From contig FSRV01000001.1 in NCBI GenBank assembly GCA_900142905.1, positions 4,464,001 to 4,528,000 of the forward strand: a stretch of 64,000 nt of DNA, written 5' to 3'. The first letter of the stretch is position 1. The number at the start of each line of letters is the position of its first letter. This DNA comes from Burkholderia sp. GAS332. Its GTDB lineage: Bacteria > Pseudomonadota > Gammaproteobacteria > Burkholderiales > Burkholderiaceae. Shown here piece by piece: positions 14,815-21,697 of this stretch. Position numbers and translations under genes: made by a program. The notes below the pieces were generated by a model that worked only from the letters and a program-made list of their open reading frames with translations, was not told the origin of the DNA and did not search any database.

Positions 14815-16465
14815 CCCGCAAGGACCGACGCCCGCCTCCGATGCGCCGCGCAACGATTCGAACGGACCCAAGCTGCCGCCCCAACTGCCAGACCCCGACA
14901 TCGAGCCGCGCAGCCGCTGGCTGCCCTCGCTCGTCTGGGTGATTCCGCTGATCGCCGCGCTGATCGGCCTCGCGCTCGTGATCAAGTCGGTGACCGAAAA
15001 AGGCCCGACCATCACAATCACGTTCACCAGCGCCGAAGGGCTCGAGCCCGGCAAGACCAAGGTCAAGTACAAGGACGTCGACGTCGGCTCGGTGAAGACC
15101 ATCACGCTCTCGAAAGATCTGTCGCACGTGCTGGTTCAGGTGCAGCTCACCAAGGAAGGCGAAGACTTCGCGGTCAAGGATTCGCGCTTCTGGGTGGTGC
15201 GCCCTCGGGTCGGCGCGAGTGGCGTGTCCGGACTGACCACGCTGCTTTCGGGCGCCTACATCGGCGCGGACGCCGGCCATTCACCGGACACCGAGAAGGA
15301 CTTCGTCGGCCTCGAAACGCCGCCGCCTATCACCGGCGACCAGAAGGGCCACCAGTTCGTTCTGCACGGCGAGTCGCTTGGCTCGATCGACATCGGCTCG
15401 CCGATTTTCTACCGGCGCGTACAGGTCGGCCAGGTGGTCGGCTTCTCGCTGGACAAGGACGGCACCGGCGTGACGATGCAGGTGTTCGTGTCGGCGCCAT
15501 TCGACCAGTACGTCGGCACCAATTCGCGCTGGTGGCATGCGAGCGGCGTCGATCTGCGGCTCGATTCGAGCGGCTTCAAGCTGAATACGCAGTCGCTTGC
15601 GACGGTGATCGTCGGTGGCCTGTCGTTCCAGTCGCCGCCTGGTCAGGGTGTCGGCGCGCAGGCGCCGAACAACATGACGTTCCGCCTCGGCTCGGATGAA
15701 CAGGACGCGATGCGCGAACCGGACGGCGTCCCATTGCGTGTGGTGATGAACTTCAATCAGTCGCTGCGTGGGCTATCGGTCGGCGCGACGGTCGATTTCC
15801 GCGGCATCGTGCTCGGTCAGGTGACCAACATCGGTATCGACTACGATCCGAAGACGCGCAGCTTCACGATGCCGGTGACGATGAACCTGTACCCGGACCG
15901 CCTCGGCAAGCGTTTCCGCGAAACCGCGCCGACGCCGGGCACCCTCGCGGGGCAAACCTTGCTGCAACAGCTCGTCAAGCATGGTCTGCGCGGCCAGTTG
16001 CGCACCGGCAATCTGATTACGAGCCAGTTGTACGTGGCGCTCGATATCTTCCCGAAAGCGCCGCCGGCCACGGTTGACGTCACGGGCGATCCGCTCGAAT
16101 TGCCGACCATTCCGAACACGCTCGACGAACTGCAACTGCAAGTCGCCGACATTGCGAAGAAGCTCGACAAGGTGCCGTTCGACGAGATCGGTACGAACCT
16201 GAACAGCGCGCTGAAGAATGCTGACCAGCTGTTCACGCGACTCGACAAGGAAGTCGTGCCGGAGGCGCGCGACACCCTGGCGGCGGCGAAACAGACTTTC
16301 GGTTCGGCCCAGGCGACGTTGCAGCAGGACTCGCCGTTGCAGTCGGATGTTCATCAGGCGTTGCAGGAACTGACCCGCACGTTGCAGTCGCTGAATGCGC
16401 TGTCGGATTATCTGGAGCGTCATCCGGAATCGTTATTGCGCGGTAAATCAGGAGATAAACCATGA
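14807..16465 (+). CDS. pqiB: Intermembrane transport MCE protein PqiB
   Basis: PqiB forms a hexameric tunnel of stacked MCE rings bridging inner and outer membranes for lipid traffic. The 552-aa protein has one N-terminal span (about 40-62, WLPSLVWVIPLIAALIGLAL). Three MCE domains follow (near 65-160, 175-260 and 290-400; each with a G-x-P/T-V-x-Y/F-x-G type core such as GSPIFYRRVQVGQVVG). The C-terminal helical needle region (about 430-550) includes FDEIGTNLNSALKNADQLF. Length matches E. coli PqiB (546). It overlaps both neighbours (8 and 4 bp), the pattern of a tight pqiA-pqiB-pqiC operon. Confidence 0.95.
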   Translation: MTSPQGPTPASDAPRNDSNGPKLPPQLPDPDIEPRSRWLPSLVWVIPLIAALIGLALVIKSVTEKGPTITITFTSAEGLEPGKTKVKYKDVDVGSVKTITLSKDLSHVLVQVQLTKEGEDFAVKDSRFWVVRPRVGASGVSGLTTLLSGAYIGADAGHSPDTEKDFVGLETPPPITGDQKGHQFVLHGESLGSIDIGSPIFYRRVQVGQVVGFSLDKDGTGVTMQVFVSAPFDQYVGTNSRWWHASGVDLRLDSSGFKLNTQSLATVIVGGLSFQSPPGQGVGAQAPNNMTFRLGSDEQDAMREPDGVPLRVVMNFNQSLRGLSVGATVDFRGIVLGQVTNIGIDYDPKTRSFTMPVTMNLYPDRLGKRFRETAPTPGTLAGQTLLQQLVKHGLRGQLRTGNLITSQLYVALDIFPKAPPATVDVTGDPLELPTIPNTLDELQLQVADIAKKLDKVPFDEIGTNLNSALKNADQLFTRLDKEVVPEARDTLAAAKQTFGSAQATLQQDSPLQSDVHQALQELTRTLQSLNALSDYLERHPESLLRGKSGDKP

Positions 16466-17190
16466 TGTTTGCCCGGCTCCCCCGCCCGCCGCGCGGGCTT
16501 GTGCGCGGCGCTGTTTATGTCGGTGCTCTGGCCGGACTGGTGGCGATGGCGGCGTGTTCGTCGCCGAGCAGCCGCTTTTATACGCTCGGCGCGGATGGCG
16601 CGGCTGCCGGATCCGCGGCGCCGGTTAGCGCCCGGACGTCGGCTGCGCCGGCGTGGCTGATTGAAGTCGCGCCGATCGATGTCCCGCCGCAGGTGGCGAA
16701 GAATCAGCTGGTAGTGCAGACGGGACCGACGCAGGTTCAGGTGCTCGAACAGGAGCGTTGGGCTTCGTTGCCGGGTGACGAGATTCGTCGGGCGTTGTCG
16801 ACGAGTCTGACGCAGCAGTTGGGTACGATCGATGTGTATGGGACTGCGTATTCGGATGCGACGCCGGTGTACCGGGTTAGCATGAATGTGCAGCGGTTCG
16901 AGTCATGGCCGGGGTCGCATGCGTTGATCGATGCGGTTTGGAGTGTGCGGGCTGTGCGGGGTACGGCTGTGATGACTTGCCGGAGTGTGGTGAGTGAGCC
17001 GGTTAGCGGTGGGTATGATGCGCTTGTTGATGGGCATCGGGCCGCGTTGCAGCAGATTGCTGGGCAGGTGGCTAGCGCTGTGAAGACTATGGCCGCTGCT
17101 GCTCCGCAAGGGAAGGTTGGGGCTAAGGGTGCTGGTTTTGCCGTGCCGGCGTGTCCTTCTGCTGTTGCTGCTGCTGGTGCGAGTAGTTGA
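16462..17190 (+). CDS. pqiC: PqiC-type outer-membrane lipoprotein (ABC-type auxiliary component)
   Basis: PqiC is the outer-membrane lipoprotein that docks on the PqiB needle. The 242-aa protein has a signal peptide ending in a lipobox (VAMAAC, Cys at about 32). The family core follows: SRFYTLG, then WLIEVAPIDVPPQVAKNQLVVQTG and a C-terminal QIAGQVASAVK helix. It overlaps pqiB by 4 bp. From about 16,780 onward the coding strand becomes strikingly G+T rich (codons such as GGG, GTG, TGT), unlike the C-ending codons upstream. This drift continues into the repeat island downstream. Confidence 0.88.
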   Translation: MMFARLPRPPRGLVRGAVYVGALAGLVAMAACSSPSSRFYTLGADGAAAGSAAPVSARTSAAPAWLIEVAPIDVPPQVAKNQLVVQTGPTQVQVLEQERWASLPGDEIRRALSTSLTQQLGTIDVYGTAYSDATPVYRVSMNVQRFESWPGSHALIDAVWSVRAVRGTAVMTCRSVVSEPVSGGYDALVDGHRAALQQIAGQVASAVKTMAAAAPQGKVGAKGAGFAVPACPSAVAAAGASS

Positions 17191-17266
17191 CGGTTTTGTT
17201 TGCCCTGCGGGCGCGTGGTTGTTTGCAGGCGCTTCGCGGGGTGATGTTTTCGGTTGGGGCCTGGCG

Positions 17267-17407
17267 GTGTTGACATTTCCTTGGGTTGGTTGCCCGCGCG
17301 GCGCTTTCTTGACTGTGAGCCTATGGCGTTGGCCTTTCCTTGATCTGTTTGCCTGCGCGGCGCTTTCTGTCTGTTTGCCTACAGCGTTGGCCTTTCCTTG
17401 ATCTGAC
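17267..17407. repeat. About 58-bp tandem repeat, two full copies plus a partial third
   Basis: Copies begin at about 17267 (degenerate), 17326 and 17384. They share GCGTTGGCCTTTCCTTGATC at the start, and the first two share GCGCGGCGCTTTCT in the middle. The third copy runs into the 85-bp perfect inverted arm. The array is non-coding and G+T rich. Confidence 0.7.
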
Positions 17408-17468
17408 TTTTTGGCCTCTCCTTGATTTGTTAGTGGTCTATTAGCGTTGCCCCTGTGCGGGGCGGCAC
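17384..17468. repeat. Left outer arm (85 bp) of a long inverted repeat
   Basis: The reverse complement of these 85 bases is identical at every position to 19332-19416. The arm ends exactly at the CAC target duplication of the IS3 element; its inner continuation resumes after the IS at 18711. Confidence 0.95.
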
Positions 17469-17510
17469 TGTAGTGGTCAAGTAAACATGGACACCCTGAA
17501 AGGGGAAACA

Positions 17511-18347
17511 TTAAAAAAGTGAAGCTTCGCATCGTGCCGGCGGTAGATCGTCTGCCGCCGAATGAATGCGCCTGTAGTTGTAAAAGCCGTCGATGTAGGC
17601 CCCGATGTCGCGTTCGGCATGCGCGTGATCGGGGTACCCTTTCTCGTTGATCCATTCGCTTTTCAGACTTCTAAAGAATCGTTCCACCGGCGCGTTGTCC
17701 CAGCAGTTTCCCTTTCTGCTCATGCTCTGGATGATGCTGTTTGCCTTCAGTTCGTTCACGAAGTGCGCGCTGGTGTACTGGCATCCCTGATCCGAGTGGA
17801 ACATCAGGCCCGGCGGCGGCTTTCGATGGTCCCGAGCCTGCTGCAAAGCCTTTAGAACCAGCACCGTGTCGGGCACCAGTGCAAACGCCCAGCCGACGAT
17901 ACGGCGCGAATACAGATCCATCACGATAGCCAGGTAGGACCAGCCCTGAAGCGTTCTCACGTAGGTAATGTCTCCCGCCCACACCTGGTTGATCGACGGC
18001 GGCTCGAAACGACGCTCAAGCAGATTCGGGGCAACCAGTGCTTCACCGTCAGCTTTGCGGTAGCGATGCGTCCGTCGTCGGGCCACCGCCAGTTGCGCCT
18101 CCTTCATCAATGAGCGTGCGCGGTAACGTCCTATCGCGTGGCCTCGCTGCTGCAATGCCAGGGCCATCCTGCGGCTGCCATAGCTGGCGCGGCTTTCGCG
18201 GTGAATTTCACGCACTGCCGCGAGCAGGGTGGGTGAAGCAGCGGCCTTGACGGGCCGCCCGGCAAAGGCGTAATAGCTGCTTCGCGGCACCTTCAGCAAC
18301 CGGCACATCACATTCACTGGCCAGGCCTTCTTCAGCGAATGGATCAC
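17511..18347 (-). CDS. IS3-family transposase OrfB (DDE integrase catalytic domain)
   Basis: This is the catalytic half of the transposase. The 278-aa frame has an N-terminal HTH_21-like region (YGSRRMALALQQRGHAIGR) and a retroviral-integrase-type DDE core: Asp in WAGDITYV, Asp in FHSDQGCQYTS and Glu in NAPVERFFRSLKSE. The C-terminal YNYRRIHSA motif is typical of IS3. The initiating codon shown is a GTG at 18347. In practice the active product is probably an OrfAB fusion made by -1 frameshifting in orfA, since the frame is open back to the A7 tract. Confidence 0.95.
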   Translation of the reverse strand: MIHSLKKAWPVNVMCRLLKVPRSSYYAFAGRPVKAAASPTLLAAVREIHRESRASYGSRRMALALQQRGHAIGRYRARSLMKEAQLAVARRRTHRYRKADGEALVAPNLLERRFEPPSINQVWAGDITYVRTLQGWSYLAIVMDLYSRRIVGWAFALVPDTVLVLKALQQARDHRKPPPGLMFHSDQGCQYTSAHFVNELKANSIIQSMSRKGNCWDNAPVERFFRSLKSEWINEKGYPDHAHAERDIGAYIDGFYNYRRIHSAADDLPPARCEASLF

Positions 18348-18646
18348 TTCGAGGAGCGATCCATTTCCTTGACGAAGAAGGCCGTGGATTTTTTTAGTAT
18401 CTCGCGCTCCCTTTCGAGCTCGATTACCCGCGCTTCCAGTTCCCGGATCCGCCGCTGATCAGCCGTGATCTGCACCTCCGTGCGCGGCGGCTCGGCCTGT
18501 TCAGCTCGCCACTGCGCGACCCATCGCCGCAACGCCGTGTCCCCCACGCCCAGTGCCTCGCAGGCCTTGGCGAATGAATAACCCTGCGCCACGACCAGTT
18601 GCACCGCTTCTGCCTTGAATTCGTCGCTTATGTTCCGTCTGCTCAT
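18344..18646 (-). CDS. IS3-family transposase OrfA (helix-turn-helix, leucine zipper)
   Basis: This 100-aa DNA-binding protein starts MSRRNISDEFKAEAVQLVV. It has an HTH_Tnp_1 domain (about 8-50) and a C-terminal coiled coil (IRELEARVIELEREREILKK, 68-87) for multimerisation. It overlaps orfB by 4 bp; slippage at the A7 tract near its end would fuse it to the catalytic domain. Confidence 0.93.
   Translation of the reverse strand: MSRRNISDEFKAEAVQLVVAQGYSFAKACEALGVGDTALRRWVAQWRAEQAEPPRTEVQITADQRRIRELEARVIELEREREILKKSTAFFVKEMDRSSK
18389..18395 (-). promoter_or_regulatory. A7 slippery tract for -1 frameshift between orfA and orfB
   Basis: On the minus strand seven A's follow CT, read in the orfA frame as CTA-AAA-AAA. 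A -1 shift there gives an open reading through LKKIHGLLRQGNGSLLEV directly into the OrfB frame, as expected for IS3-family OrfAB production. Confidence 0.8.
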
Positions 18647-18710
18647 CTCTCACCTCAGTTGGAGAATTATCCCCTTTAGAGGTGTCCAGAGTCATTGGAC
18701 CACTACACAC

Positions 18711-18846
18711 TTACTTTCTTTGCCGCCGCAAAGAAAGATAAGCAAAGAAAGCGGCTAGAAGCCCCTGCTAAGCGGGTCCCCCGCACAGCTACGGTAGTGG
18801 TGCATCTGGAATCTGTGCCCTCGCACATTCAGCCTTGGTGACAAAG
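18711..18846. repeat. Left inner arm of the long inverted repeat
   Basis: It is the inverted counterpart of about 19193-19331 at roughly 90% identity by eye. It contains a hairpin with a 10-bp stem (CTTTCTTTGC / GCAAAGAAAG, 18714-18737). Before the IS insertion it was continuous with 17384-17468. Confidence 0.9.
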
Positions 18847-18953
18847 CAGTCATACTTCCGGCGGCGCTGCGCGCGCCGAAGAGCAATTCTTAAAACCACC
18901 CGCTACGTTTAAGCTCTCGTGTCTTGCGCTGCACCGTAACTCGTCATTGCATC

Positions 18954-19031
18954 GCCACTGCGAGTGCCACTGCCACTGCCACTGCGAGTGCGAGTGCGAG
19001 TGCGAGTGCGAGTGCGAGTGCGAGTGCGAGT
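18954..19031. repeat. Hexanucleotide tandem array, 13 units of GCGAGT/GCCACT
   Basis: Units in order: GCCACT, GCGAGT, three GCCACT, then eight GCGAGT. No unit creates a stop, so open frames pass through with Cys/His/Glu or Arg/Val repeats, but no gene signals support coding. It sits near the centre of the inverted-repeat element. Confidence 0.95.
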
Positions 19032-19192
19032 GCGACAGATCGAGATTTCATTTGAAGTGTGGTTCGCCCATGAATGCAGAGGCGCTTCGGCGAGGCGAGG
19101 CCGATGGCCCCCACCGCCCCCAAACGAAGCCCTTGGTTTCCCTGGCAGACCCATCCGCGACGCACGCAGTGCGGAGTGGGCGCTGATGAGCC

Positions 19193-19416
19193 CTTTGTCA
19201 CCAACGCTGAATGTGCGAGGGCACAGATTCCAGATGCACCACTACCGTAACTGTGCGAGAAACCCGCTTAGCAGGGGCTTCGAGCCGCTTTCTTTTGCCT
19301 ACTTTTCTTTGCGGCCGGCAAAGAAAAGTAGGTGCCGCCCCGCACAGGGGCAACGCTAATAGACCACTAACAAATCAAGGAGAGGCCAAAAAGTCAGATC
19401 AAGGAAAGGCCAACGC
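19193..19416. repeat. Right arm of the long inverted repeat, uninterrupted
   Basis: This arm contains both segments found split on the left: the ~138-bp inner part and the perfect 85-bp outer part (19332-19416). Within it lies a 15-bp perfect hairpin stem (19298-19312 / 19318-19332, loop GGCCG). Weaker similarity to the left side continues to about 19460 (GCGCCGCGAAGGC against GCCTGCGCGGCGC). Confidence 0.95.
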
Positions 19417-19564
19417 CACAGGCACACAGACGAACAAGCGCCGCGAAGGCAAAAAAGCAAAATAGTGCAAAACATCAACCAGCACAAAAACCACATGCCA
19501 TATCCTTCCAGCTAACCGAACCCTAAGCGCCGCAGGCAACAACCCCGTAGGGCAAAAAACCAAA
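19417..19564. other. A+C-rich spacer before the gcr-like gene
   Basis: The 148 bp between the repeat arm and the next gene are strongly A+C rich on the + strand, with several A-runs. They must hold the promoter for the gene at 19565, but no -35/-10 pair stands out and no strong ribosome site is visible. Confidence 0.5.
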
Positions 19565-21697
19565 ATGTTCACCTCAATCAAAAGATTCATAAAAAAATGG
19601 CGAGCCTCCCGCGACGGCGGCCACCAACTGGACGCGCTCCTAGCGATCGCAGACAAGACGGCGCCCTATCCAGACCGCAGTGAATGGCTGATCGAGCTCG
19701 CCCACTGGATCCACCGCGGCCGCGCCGTCCAACCCGAGCAACTCGATAACACCGTCGAAAACGCTACCTCACGCTCAACCCTGGCGCACGCAAGAGTCCG
19801 TTATCTCCTCCACGTGCTGGACCGTAACCCGGCCTGGAAGGCCAACGTCGCCGGCATTCTCCGCGCGCTCCTGCGCGAAAGCGACGGCCTCTCGCTTCTC
19901 TGCGATGCAGGCATGCCCGTGCACTCCGGCTTCTTCGGCGCACTCTTCGAACGCCTCGAAGCCTCACTTATCCCCCCCGCGCCGAACCGGCGCGATCTGC
20001 GCGCGATCGTCACCCTGATGTTCAGCCAGGAACGCGACGCCGAATGGATCGCCAGTCTGCCAACCGATCTGCTCACCCGCATCCGCGCCCTCTTCGACTA
20101 TGAAGAGGACGACAACGAACATCGCGACACCACCCCGTTCTCGCTCGACCTGCTGGCCGCCCTGCACAATCTCACCTGCCAGATCAGTTCGACCGGTCTC
20201 TCGCAAACAGTCCGCAGCCGTCTCGGCGAAGTGGACGCCGGCGATGCCAGCGACGTGCGCGTCGCCATGGAAAAGCAGCCGTTCTACCGGCTCACGCGCG
20301 CCATGCTCGCCGTCGAAGCGGCCCATCAGGACGTCAGTGCAGGCGCCCCGCAAGACAAGCTGCTGCATGAGGTCAACTATCTGCGCCTGCTGCTCGACGA
20401 ATGCCGCAGCGCTACCGACAACGTCTTCGCCCATCTCTATCGCAACGGCGTCAGTGTCGATATCGTGTTCCAGGTCGAACGGATGCGCATGCGCATCGTG
20501 CGCGCGGAGCACCTGCTGAACACCTGGATGGCGCCGGACGATCCGCACGCCGGCGCGCGTCTCACCGCCGAACTGGTGAACGCCAATCACGCAAGCCAGA
20601 GCGTCGCGCATCTCGTGCGCAGCAATTTCTCATTGCTGGCGCGCAAGGTCGTCGAGTACAGCGCCGATACCGGCGAGCACTACATCGCACGCGATCGCGC
20701 CGAATACCTGAAGATGCTGCGCATGGCAGCCGGCGGCGGACTCGTCACCGTGGTCACGGTCTGCGTGAAATTCGCCATCACCGGCGTACATCTGCAATCG
20801 ATGTTCGAAGGCCTGCTCGCCGGCATCAACTATGCGGCCAGCTTCCTGCTGATTCACTTCCTGCACTTCTCGCTCGCCACCAAGCAGCCGGCGATGACCG
20901 CACCCACGCTCGCCCGCGAATTGGACGGCGTCGGCACGCCGGCAGGCGTCGACAGCTTCGTGAGTTCGGTCACCGCATTGATGCGCACGCAGGCAGCCGC
21001 CGTGCTCGGCAACGTGCTGTTGGTGTTTCCCGTGTGCTTCGGCGTGCAATTACTGTGGCATGCGCTGTTCAACGCCAACATCATTTCGCCCGAGAAAGCC
21101 CACGCCACACTGCACTCGTTCTCGCTGCTGGGACCGACGCCGTTCTATGCCGCGCTGACCGGCGTGTTGCTGTGGTCGTCGAGTTTGCTGTCAGGGTGGG
21201 CGGACAACTGGTTCGTCCTGCATCGCGTGGCCGATGCGCTCGCCTATAACCGGCGCCTGCGCATGACGCTCGGCGTGGCCGGCGCGGCCCGGCTCGCCGC
21301 GTTTTGCCGCACGAACGTGGCGGGCGTCGTGGGCAACATCACGCTCGGCCTGATGCTTGGCCTCGTGCCGGCGATCCTCACCGCCTTCGCCTTCACGTTC
21401 GAGGTGCGTCACGTGACGCTGAGCGCCGGCTCGATCGGCATCGCACTCGGCGTGCTCGGCAAAGACGCGTTGAAGTTGCCGGAGTTGTGGTGGGCGGTCG
21501 CGGGCGTCGGCAGCATGGCGATCCTCAACGTGGCCGTGAGTTTCGCGCTCGCCTTCTACATGGCGGTGAAATCGCGCGACTTGCGGCGCAATGCGGTGCG
21601 CTCGCTGCGCGGCGCGATCTGGCAACGGGTGTTCAGGCATCCGCTGGAGCTGGTATGGCCGGCCAAAACGGCCCCGCACCCCGACCGCGTACAATAG
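19565..21697 (+). CDS. Polytopic membrane protein of the 'site-specific recombinase Gcr' family (PF10136-like)
   Basis: The 710-aa protein matches my memory of the family annotated as site-specific recombinase (Gcr, COG4389) in Burkholderiales and Neisseria. The N-terminal half (1-380) is soluble and helical, with LLHEVNYLRLLLDECR and VFQVERMRMRIVRAEHLLNTW. From about residue 388 there are six or more hydrophobic spans, for example MAAGGGLVTVVTVCVKFAI and NITLGLMLGLVPAILTAFAF. I see no tyrosine- or serine-recombinase catalytic pattern, so the recombinase label is doubtful. Its true function is unknown. The start lacks a clear ribosome site, and early codons are A+C rich. rlmL-like follows 30 bp later. 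Confidence 0.8.
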   Translation: MFTSIKRFIKKWRASRDGGHQLDALLAIADKTAPYPDRSEWLIELAHWIHRGRAVQPEQLDNTVENATSRSTLAHARVRYLLHVLDRNPAWKANVAGILRALLRESDGLSLLCDAGMPVHSGFFGALFERLEASLIPPAPNRRDLRAIVTLMFSQERDAEWIASLPTDLLTRIRALFDYEEDDNEHRDTTPFSLDLLAALHNLTCQISSTGLSQTVRSRLGEVDAGDASDVRVAMEKQPFYRLTRAMLAVEAAHQDVSAGAPQDKLLHEVNYLRLLLDECRSATDNVFAHLYRNGVSVDIVFQVERMRMRIVRAEHLLNTWMAPDDPHAGARLTAELVNANHASQSVAHLVRSNFSLLARKVVEYSADTGEHYIARDRAEYLKMLRMAAGGGLVTVVTVCVKFAITGVHLQSMFEGLLAGINYAASFLLIHFLHFSLATKQPAMTAPTLARELDGVGTPAGVDSFVSSVTALMRTQAAAVLGNVLLVFPVCFGVQLLWHALFNANIISPEKAHATLHSFSLLGPTPFYAALTGVLLWSSSLLSGWADNWFVLHRVADALAYNRRLRMTLGVAGAARLAAFCRTNVAGVVGNITLGLMLGLVPAILTAFAFTFEVRHVTLSAGSIGIALGVLGKDALKLPELWWAVAGVGSMAILNVAVSFALAFYMAVKSRDLRRNAVRSLRGAIWQRVFRHPLELVWPAKTAPHPDRVQ
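21690..21695 (+). promoter_or_regulatory. Possible -10 element (TACAAT) for the methyltransferase gene
   Basis: TACAAT lies inside the last codons of the upstream gene, 33 bp before the methyltransferase ATG. No good -35 is visible, so an independent promoter is only possible. Confidence 0.3.

What the first reader, a model, noticed from the sequence alone, without database searches (positions are those of the whole stretch)
17384..19416. Large inverted-repeat element with hexamer core, split by an IS
Segments 17384-17468 plus 18711-18846 mirror 19193-19416. Removing the IS leaves two arms of roughly 220 bp around a 346-bp centre that carries 13 hexamer units. Each arm holds its own hairpin (10-bp and 15-bp stems). 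No coding gene explains it. It looks like a non-autonomous palindromic or REP-like element family, possibly able to form a cruciform. I recall similar GCAAAGAAAGTAGGTGCC motifs elsewhere in Burkholderiales genomes, but cannot verify that here.
Basis: seen in the sequence. Interest (0 to 1): 0.7.

Follow-up and report, generated by a model that had tools for sequence, protein, structure and literature searches.

The report
Palindromic repeats with one-sided mutation scars
The odd inverted repeat is one of dozens of copies of a mobile-looking palindromic element in this soil bacterium, and the DNA just outside each copy looks heavily and lopsidedly mutated for about a kilobase, as if that side were repeatedly left single-stranded.

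Summary
An inverted-repeat element lies between pqiC and a PF10136 gene; an IS3-family insertion splits its left arm. It is one of 64 loci in this genome, 46 with both arms. The inner motif occurs in 69 of 144 genus genomes.

The unexpected result is in the flanks. Read toward the cap, host DNA loses C and A and gains T and G, fading over about 1.2 kb. The pattern:
- is strongest at third codon positions and keeps its sign whichever way genes point;
- is present at the same genes in species with the element and absent in those without;
- recurs in P. caribensis, a second genus and 97 arms chosen by cap sequence alone;
- lies on the outer side of unpaired arms, with little on the inner side.

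So each arm behaves as a directional source of strand-biased mutation. The sign fits repeated exposure of a 3'-ended single strand, for example after a nick or break at the cap and outward resection. Enzyme and cut are inferred. I found no bacterial precedent in the searches listed.

The parts
16462..17190 (+). pqiC (ABC_trans_aux); left flank, its 3' part carries the footprint
   Evidence: PF03886 148 bits. Third positions in the last third: C 0.07, T 0.49; first third: C 0.28, T 0.20.
17191..17409 (.). left tail: G/T-rich degenerate tandem units of about 58 bp, reaching the pqiC stop codon
   Evidence: direct repeats D2, D3 and inverted pairs I3, I7 with the right tail
17410..17468 (-). left arm, outer cap box with the GCCCC/GGGGC hairpin at 17449-17463
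   Evidence: I2; conserved block in 99 own-genome arms
17469..18707 (-). IS3-family insertion (orfB 17514-18347, orfA 18347-18646), 3-bp duplication CAC on both sides
   Evidence: terminal inverted repeats I4; NF033516 320 bits; rve and HTH_Tnp_1; duplication read
18711..18743 (-). left arm, long cap hairpin (decayed, about 10-bp stem)
   Evidence: read; pair I5 with the right arm
18744..18846 (-). left arm, inner module with the 19-mer TAGTGGTGCATCTGGAATC at 18795-18813
   Evidence: I1; 113 genome hits with up to 3 mismatches, the 100 listed (best first) are exact
18847..19192 (.). centre, 346 bp, with two different end motifs and a variable middle
   Evidence: 46 centres, 182-1476 bp
18954..19031 (.). 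13 hexamer units (GCCACT/GCGAGT)
   Evidence: some other centres have different tandem units or none
19193..19296 (+). right arm, inner module with GATTCCAGATGCACCACTA at 19226-19244
19297..19333 (+). right arm, long cap hairpin with 15-bp perfect stem
   Evidence: I9; predicted DNA fold
19334..19376 (+). right arm, second cap hairpin (GCCCC GCACA GGGGC, 19337-19351) and conserved outer box
   Evidence: overlaps the Rfam RF02421 match 19322-19425 (42.6 bits, gathering 44)
19377..19564 (.). right tail: A/C-rich degenerate repeat units up to the start of the next gene
19565..21697 (+). SpecificRecomb family gene; right flank, its 5' part carries the footprint
   Evidence: PF10136 724 bits. Third-position G+T 0.29 in the first 600 bp, 0.48 at 1200-2100.

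Best explanation
The element is a non-autonomous palindromic repeat whose working part is the cap at the outer end of each arm (two adjacent hairpins plus an outer box). Shown: caps are flanked on their outer side by about 1-1.3 kb of host DNA in which the strand pointing toward the cap has less C and A and more T and G. This does not need paired arms, keeps its sign with either gene direction, is equal on both sides of pairs, and goes with presence of the element. Inferred: the cap is recurrently nicked or broken in a fixed orientation. The 5'-ended strand is then removed outward and the 3'-ended strand stays single-stranded, deaminates, and is fixed when repair by recombination copies it. 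Pairs of arms simply put two such directional sites back to back. The enzyme is unknown; a HUH-type or other hairpin nuclease, or a mobilising transposase acting on one end, would fit.
For: Averaged over 46 pairs, GC skew goes from about 0.02 or less in size beyond 1.5 kb to +0.28 left and -0.27 right at 200-300 bp; TA skew from about 0.05 or less to +0.31 and -0.32. Composition read toward the element: C 0.31 to 0.21, T 0.19 to 0.28, A 0.18 to 0.15, G 0.32 to 0.36. Third codon positions (genes called by my own crude script) in genes pointing toward the element: C 0.39 to 0.13, T 0.14 to 0.33; in genes pointing away, the same strand C 0.37 to 0.21, T 0.10 to 0.21. In the 64-kb window the switch across the element is 0.26 against a background sd of 0.043. 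Same gene in 30 species: third-position G+T in the first 600 bp is 0.22-0.34 in 16 with arms upstream, 0.39-0.52 in 12 without; mean composition at 1200-2100 bp is nearly the same (p 6e-6 with two doubtful rows counted as absent). pqiC last 120 codons: C 0.149, T 0.367 with (8 species) versus C 0.338, T 0.133 without (11). Unpaired arms: 13 of own genome, outer 0.627 versus inner 0.518, p 0.0005; 12 in named species, 0.637 versus 0.513, p 0.001. P. caribensis (20 elements) and a second genus (18 pairs) show it with other inner modules. A composition-only scan of 581 kb of P. caribensis put cap pairs at the 7 strongest switches and 9 of the top 10. Two strains differ 1.86% at 50-200 bp from the cap against 0.67-0.89% beyond 400 bp, with C/T:A/G 22:6 in that nearest bin (20 of 40 flanks aligned).
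Against: No nuclease, break or single-stranded intermediate was seen. The two strands of the cap fold equally well (-22.1 and -21.8 kcal/mol), so hairpin strength does not explain the one-sidedness. The polarised substitution table at the window gene is mixed: in codons 0-200 G>A 0.203 versus 0.060 fits, but G>C 0.181 versus 0.038 (C to G on the exposed strand) is raised just as much, which simple deamination does not give; in codons 200-400 G>A is only 0.047 versus 0.032 while C>T, the opposite sense, is 0.080 versus 0.030; and at codons 400-710 G>A and G>C are also about 2-fold higher in element species. In the strain comparison the C/T excess is only in the nearest bin (15:16 at 200-400 bp), which partly lies in repetitive tails. 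Three of 13 unpaired arms have raised inner values, 0.57-0.60, perhaps decayed partners. An insertion that splits the arm does not weaken the footprint (0.642 on split sides, 0.617 on intact sides of the same elements, 14 pairs, p 0.04 in the other direction). Species in the ortholog test are related, so they are not independent. The one Y1 transposase relative above cut-off has no cap beside it, and 143 of 144 genus genomes have a Y1 match whether or not the inner motif is there.
Confidence: 0.4

Rival explanations
1. The cap is a directional control site for end resection (Chi-like): RecBCD-type enzymes arriving from the inner side switch at the cap and leave a 3'-ended tail on its far, outer side. 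Breaks happen elsewhere; the cap only decides where single strands begin.
For: Gives the right strand, one-sidedness for unpaired arms and equal strength in pairs and singles. TGGTG in the 19-mer resembles E. coli Chi (recalled, weak).
Against: Chi sites are short and unstructured (recalled); the shared part here is a hairpin block of about 75 bp. The inner half with the 19-mer has no match in the P. caribensis and Caballeronia places examined, where the footprint persists. Fork-related breaks predict a stronger origin side; left and right are equal (paired p 0.24).
Confidence: 0.2
2. Polymerases stall at cap hairpins during replication and restart further on, leaving gaps that mutate.
For: Gap length would be Okazaki-sized, as seen; a block on each strand gives opposite signs on the two sides of a pair.
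Against: A hairpin that folds equally in both strands should scar both sides of an unpaired arm; the inner side shows little or nothing.
Confidence: 0.1
3. Selection, not mutation: G/T-rich strands pointing toward the cap are favoured, for example for strand exchange or element function.
For: C to G as well as C to T changes are raised, and the substitution table is not a clean deamination spectrum. Known recombination signals are G/T-rich (recalled).
Against: Change is strongest at third codon positions, lowers GC content and extends over host coding sequence with a smooth decay.
Confidence: 0.13
4. Ordinary REP/MITE-like repeat that prefers to insert where composition already switches; the flanks are a pre-existing target.
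For: Copies lie close to gene ends; palindromic repeats are common in bacteria.
Against: Orthologous genes without the element lack the switch. A species that seems to have lost the element (only tails left, L134) keeps a partial footprint, 0.33. The pattern continues into gene bodies.
Confidence: 0.05
5. Transcription running into the element exposes the coding strand of both flanks.
For: Sign fits genes pointing toward the element, which are a little stronger.
Against: 39 of 91 nearest called genes point away and show the same sign and nearly the same size.
Confidence: 0.03

Closest known systems
REP / BIME / REPIN repeats (RAYT-linked)
   Same: High-copy palindromes near gene ends, often inverted pairs, hairpins; target sites for specific insertion sequences, as reported for REPs in PMC1525189 (abstract read).
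   Different: Much larger unit (arms near 200 bp, cap-to-cap distance about 450-1000 bp in most pairs), conserved two-hairpin cap, no cap beside the Y1 transposase gene examined, and a kilobase one-sided composition scar that I have not seen reported for REPs in the searches listed.
MITEs
   Same: Terminal inverted repeats, near-constant unit length within one species (23 cap pairs of 547-553 bp spacing in one P. caribensis replicon).
   Different: No parent transposon or target duplication found; arms also stand alone.
Rfam RF02421 Bp1_684 (candidate Burkholderia sRNA)
   Same: Overlaps cap and outer box of both arms (42.6 and 28.2 bits).
   Different: Below the gathering score of 44. In PMC3521395 (passages found by term) it is one of the candidates taken to RT-PCR; the word 'repeat' does not occur in that text.
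Fragile palindromes causing flank mutagenesis in yeast (PMC3681665, abstract and outline read)
   Same: Inverted-repeat breakage raises mutation in genes on the flanks, explained by long single strands.
   Different: There the fragile motif itself is the inverted repeat and both sides are affected; here the pattern is natural, needs no paired arms and is one-sided.

Membership tests
REP/REPIN | high-copy, extragenic, palindromic, inverted pairs | tested here: met
   64 loci, 46 with paired arms; placement near gene ends by my own gene calls
REP/REPIN | short 20-40 bp unit with an unpaired GTAG or CGTC tag | tested here: inconclusive
   GTAGG stands at the foot of the long cap hairpin but is paired within that stem, and the unit is far longer
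REP/REPIN | cognate RAYT gene flanked by the same repeat | tested here: not met
   the Y1_Tnp hit above cut-off (REP_Tyr_transpos 57.7 bits, cut-off 80) has no cap within 1.5 kb, nor has the weaker second hit; 143 of 144 genus genomes have a Y1 match
MITE | terminal inverted repeats, near-constant length copies | tested here: met
MITE | target-site duplication | tested here: inconclusive
   sites without the element found but tails and divergence blur the junction
MITE | related transposase between the same ends | tested here: inconclusive
   46 centres printed, the long ones in part; the two longest were read, one holds what I recognise as an IS66-associated remnant; no family search was run on the centres
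Rfam Bp1_684 | score at or above gathering cut-off | tested here: not met
   42.6 versus 44 bits
Replication terminus (Ter-like polar block) | effect depends on replication direction | tested here: not met
   left and right footprints equal in 45 pairs and similar in each chromosome sector; origin placed only by rough skew
Chi-like site | protects from RecBCD/AddAB and stimulates recombination | not testable with these tools
   needs a biochemical or genetic assay

The most novel reading that the evidence does not exclude
A family of bacterial repeat elements acts as built-in directional mutators: each copy repeatedly opens about a kilobase of neighbouring chromosome on one fixed side and one fixed strand, so that roughly 1% of the genome (my estimate, about 100 arms times 1 kb), including ends of ordinary genes, evolves under a separate strand-biased mutation regime.
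Probability: 0.55. Interest if true: 0.9.

Novelty: new variant of a known kind. Interest (0 to 1): 0.75.

Why it matters
Mutation rate and spectrum in bacteria are usually treated as set by replication strand, transcription and sequence context. Here a repeat seems to impose its own local, one-sided, strand-specific spectrum over about 1.2 kb, visible from sequence alone in two genera. That would make local single-strand exposure readable as a fossil in the genome, gives a handle to find the enzyme that does it, and warns that genes beside such repeats can mislead codon-usage, selection and phylogeny analyses. It also offers a natural system for break or gap induced mutagenesis, which I otherwise know mainly from engineered palindromes (recalled, and PMC3681665 abstract).

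Tried and rejected
1. Autonomous mobile partner inside the arms: the two longest centres (L066 1476 bp, L065 839 bp) were read; L066 has a gene I recognise as IS66-associated, so probably an inserted remnant. No family search was run on the centres.

2. RAYT as the driver: Y1_Tnp gives two hits in the genome, one over the cut-off, neither with a cap nearby; 143 of 144 genus genomes have a match. Not excluded as enzyme, but presence does not track the element.

3. Transcription and replication direction as cause: disfavoured by gene orientation and left/right equality.

4. Long palindrome as the cause: unpaired arms are as strong as pairs.

5. Strand-specific hairpin strength: both strands fold alike.

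6. Target duplication at sites without the element: not resolved.

7. Printed record: searches, judged by titles and starts of abstracts in the listings, showed no paper on this repeat or on such scars in bacteria; six motif strings of cap and 19-mer gave 0 papers. Four papers were opened: one by term search (PMC3521395), three by abstract and outline (PMC1525189, PMC3681665, PMC6061781). The library holds open-licence papers only.

Rows dropped: of 18 loci without a pair, one search used 17 (L039, a partial cap, left out) and one search used 13 (also without L031, L041, L078, which carry insertions, and L043, truncated). L121 (contig edge, 0.30) and L134 (tails only, 0.33) were counted as absent and left out. 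One side of L045 was too short. Of 20 loci fetched from other species, 17 entered. From I used the 80 listed stretches of 120 found. T>C rests on 2 sites and is not used. The pattern had one A too few, so its zero for P. caribensis is void; one search replaced it. The script stopped on an empty last bin after printing the table used here.
Full report
WHAT IS THERE. Inverted pairs 17369-17468 / 19332-19431 and 18744-18853 / 19186-19295 are 96% and 92% complementary, interrupted on the left by an IS3-family insertion 17469-18707. The right arm has a perfect 15-bp stem next to a second hairpin GCCCC-GCACA-GGGGC; I call these two hairpins plus the box outside them the cap. Inside lies an inner module with a 19-mer, GATTCCAGATGCACCACTA, then a 346-bp centre with 13 hexamers. 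Outside the cap come degenerate tandem units of about 58 bp that reach the neighbouring genes.

A FAMILY, NOT A CHANCE PAIR. In this 10.4-Mb genome the inner motif has 113 hits and the outer motif 96, evenly on both strands, against 3 and 0 for the patterns read backwards. They group in 64 places; 46 have both arms facing each other and 18 do not. Centres run from 182 to 1476 bp with two recurrent, different ends and a variable middle; some hold hexamers or other tandem repeats, some none. At a 2-mismatch limit 69 of 144 genus genomes have the inner motif, 1 to 235 copies. A 20-base cap hairpin motif (1 mismatch) is found in 63 of 329 genomes drawn from the family, in numbers only in the own genus and one other, g3 (I take g3 to be Caballeronia because Caballeronia plasmids carry the cap). 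In one P. caribensis replicon 23 cap pairs have a near-constant spacing of 547-553 bp, with a different inner module and different tails. So the element is modular and looks mobile; the cap is what the lineages share.

THE FLANKS. Reading the sequences around the copies, the DNA left of an element looked G/T-rich and the DNA right of it A/C-rich, into the coding ends of genes. Averaged over the 46 pairs, GC skew is about 0.02 or less in size beyond 1.5 kb and reaches +0.28 (left) and -0.27 (right) at 200-300 bp; TA skew +0.31 and -0.32. Read toward the element, C falls from 0.31 to 0.21, T rises from 0.19 to 0.28, A falls from 0.18 to 0.15 and G rises from 0.32 to 0.36. Third codon positions change most (genes called by my own crude script): C 0.39 to 0.13 and T 0.14 to 0.33 in genes pointing at the element. 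In genes pointing away the same strand changes in the same sense, C 0.37 to 0.21 and T 0.10 to 0.21. In the 100-700 bp zone 44 of 45 left and 45 of 45 right sides exceed one half, and left and right are equal (paired p 0.24). In the 64-kb window the switch across the element is 0.26, against a background sd of 0.043.

IS THE ELEMENT THE CAUSE? At the window locus I compared the right-hand gene in 30 species. Sixteen have element arms upstream: third-position G+T in the first 600 bp is 0.22-0.34. Twelve have none: 0.39-0.52. L134 has no core but keeps tails and lies at 0.33; L121 ends at a contig edge and lies at 0.30. Counting both as absent, p is 6e-6; at 1200-2100 bp the group means are nearly the same. 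The left gene pqiC agrees: last 120 codons C 0.149, T 0.367 in 8 species with the element, C 0.338, T 0.133 in 11 without. In six of the species without it pqiC and the next gene are 1 bp apart. Species are related, so this p-value is not a count of independent events; the 46 loci within one genome are closer to independent. A polarised substitution table for the right-hand gene is mixed: in codons 0-200 G>A (0.203 versus 0.060) fits, G>C is raised as much (0.181 versus 0.038), and in codons 200-400 the opposite change C>T is raised (0.080 versus 0.030) while G>A hardly is (0.047 versus 0.032).

REPLICATION OF THE RESULT. Twenty of the 23 P. caribensis pairs, with another inner module: 0.67-0.69 at 100-200 bp, 0.58 at 300-600, 0.52-0.54 at 1000-1500. 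Seventeen pairs from four other genomes of the genus: 0.64 and 0.63 at 100-300 bp, 0.51-0.52 at 1000-1500. Eighteen pairs picked from the listed hits of six genomes of genus g3: 0.615, 0.551, 0.517 in the bins 100-200, 300-600, 1000-1500. Ninety-seven arms in the 80 listed stretches fetched by cap sequence alone: 0.664 at 100-200 bp (91 of 94 above one half), 0.594 at 300-600, 0.506 at 1500-2500. Conversely, a scan of 581 kb of P. caribensis by composition only put cap pairs at the 7 strongest switches and 9 of the top 10; those stretches were chosen near expected element places, though 5 of 13 held no cap. Two P. caribensis strains, compared at the 20 of 40 flanks that aligned, differ by 1.86% at 50-200 bp from caps against 0.67-0.89% beyond 400 bp, with C/T:A/G 22:6 in that nearest bin but 15:16 in the next; G/T:A/C is 26:13 within 1.1 kb and 1:11 beyond. 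This suggests the process is still active, with the caveat that the nearest bin includes repetitive tails.

THE SCAR IS ONE-SIDED. Unpaired arms are a natural experiment. In 13 of them in this genome the outer side has 0.627 and the inner side 0.518 (p 0.0005); three of the 13 inner values are raised, 0.57-0.60, perhaps from decayed partners. The 17 used first gave the same picture. In 12 unpaired caps of named species it is 0.637 and 0.513 (p 0.001). Pairs are not stronger than singles (0.610 versus 0.637). Thus the long palindrome is not needed, and each cap seems to work outward on its own.

HOW IT MAY WORK. The depleted strand is the one whose 3' end points at the cap. Loss of C with gain of T, and loss of A with gain of G, is what hydrolytic deamination of that strand would do when it is single-stranded (general knowledge). 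Outward replication or outward transcription would expose the other strand. Inward transcription is disfavoured by gene orientation, a polar fork block by left/right equality, and hairpin stalling by the one-sidedness with equal folding of both strands. What remains is removal of the 5'-ended strand outward from the cap: a fixed-orientation nick or break at the cap, or a Chi-like switch of a resecting enzyme at the cap. C to G changes are also raised, so repair of the single strand is not simple copying, or selection has a part. The nuclease is not identified; the Y1 transposase relative does not track the element.

INSERTION TRAP. Besides the IS in the window, at least four other insertion types sit at fixed points in the arms of this genome. 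A gap of the size of one of them (1369 bp) splits the second hairpin at 11 loci; its ends, read at four loci, show a duplication of about 10 bp. This resembles reports that specific insertion sequences choose REP palindromes (PMC1525189, abstract read).

WHAT IS KNOWN. The repeat is closest to REP/BIME repeats and MITEs but fails or leaves open defining features of both (see membership table). Rfam has a candidate sRNA, Bp1_684, that overlaps the cap just below its cut-off (PMC3521395, passages read). For yeast, inverted-repeat breakage is known to mutate flanking genes (PMC3681665, abstract and outline). In the listings I saw no paper on this repeat or on one-sided scars beside bacterial repeats; most subscription journals are not in that library.

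VERDICT. A real, widespread palindromic repeat family, best filed as a new variant of REP/MITE-like repeats, with a strong and unexpected property: each cap looks like a directional source of strand-biased mutation. The composition pattern is well supported; the mechanism is a commitment at about 0.4.

Noticed in passing
window 17469-18707; L031, L033-L036, L041, L044, L045, L047, L053, L056, L063, L064, L071, L075, L078, L091, L093: At least five kinds of insertion sequence sit at fixed points inside the arms' hairpins (sizes, ends of 15 insertions printed); the 1369-bp kind shows a duplication of about 10 bp in the second hairpin (read in L031, L036).
   Followed up: partly
L134 (genome G450), pqiC to next gene: Intergenic DNA with only left and right tails and the G/T to A/C switch: looks like a place where the element core was lost but the scar remains.
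   Followed up: partly
G000:C1:440211-440501 (L097): Y1 transposase relative (REP_Tyr_transpos 57.7 bits, cut-off 80); a Y1 match is found in 143 of 144 genus genomes; function unknown.
   Followed up: partly
L066 3662-5137: Element centre carrying a gene and fragment that look IS66-associated, by eye.
   Followed up: no
L087: An unpaired arm whose inner side faces what looks, by eye, like an rRNA operon promoter region.
   Followed up: no
whole genome G000: No listed hit of either motif lies on the third contig (about 0.8 Mb), only on the two large ones (outer motif: all 96 listed; inner motif: 100 of 113 listed).
   Followed up: no
window 19322-19425 and 17373-17474: Sub-threshold Rfam matches to Bp1_684, a candidate sRNA that may in fact be a repeat-derived family.
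   Followed up: partly
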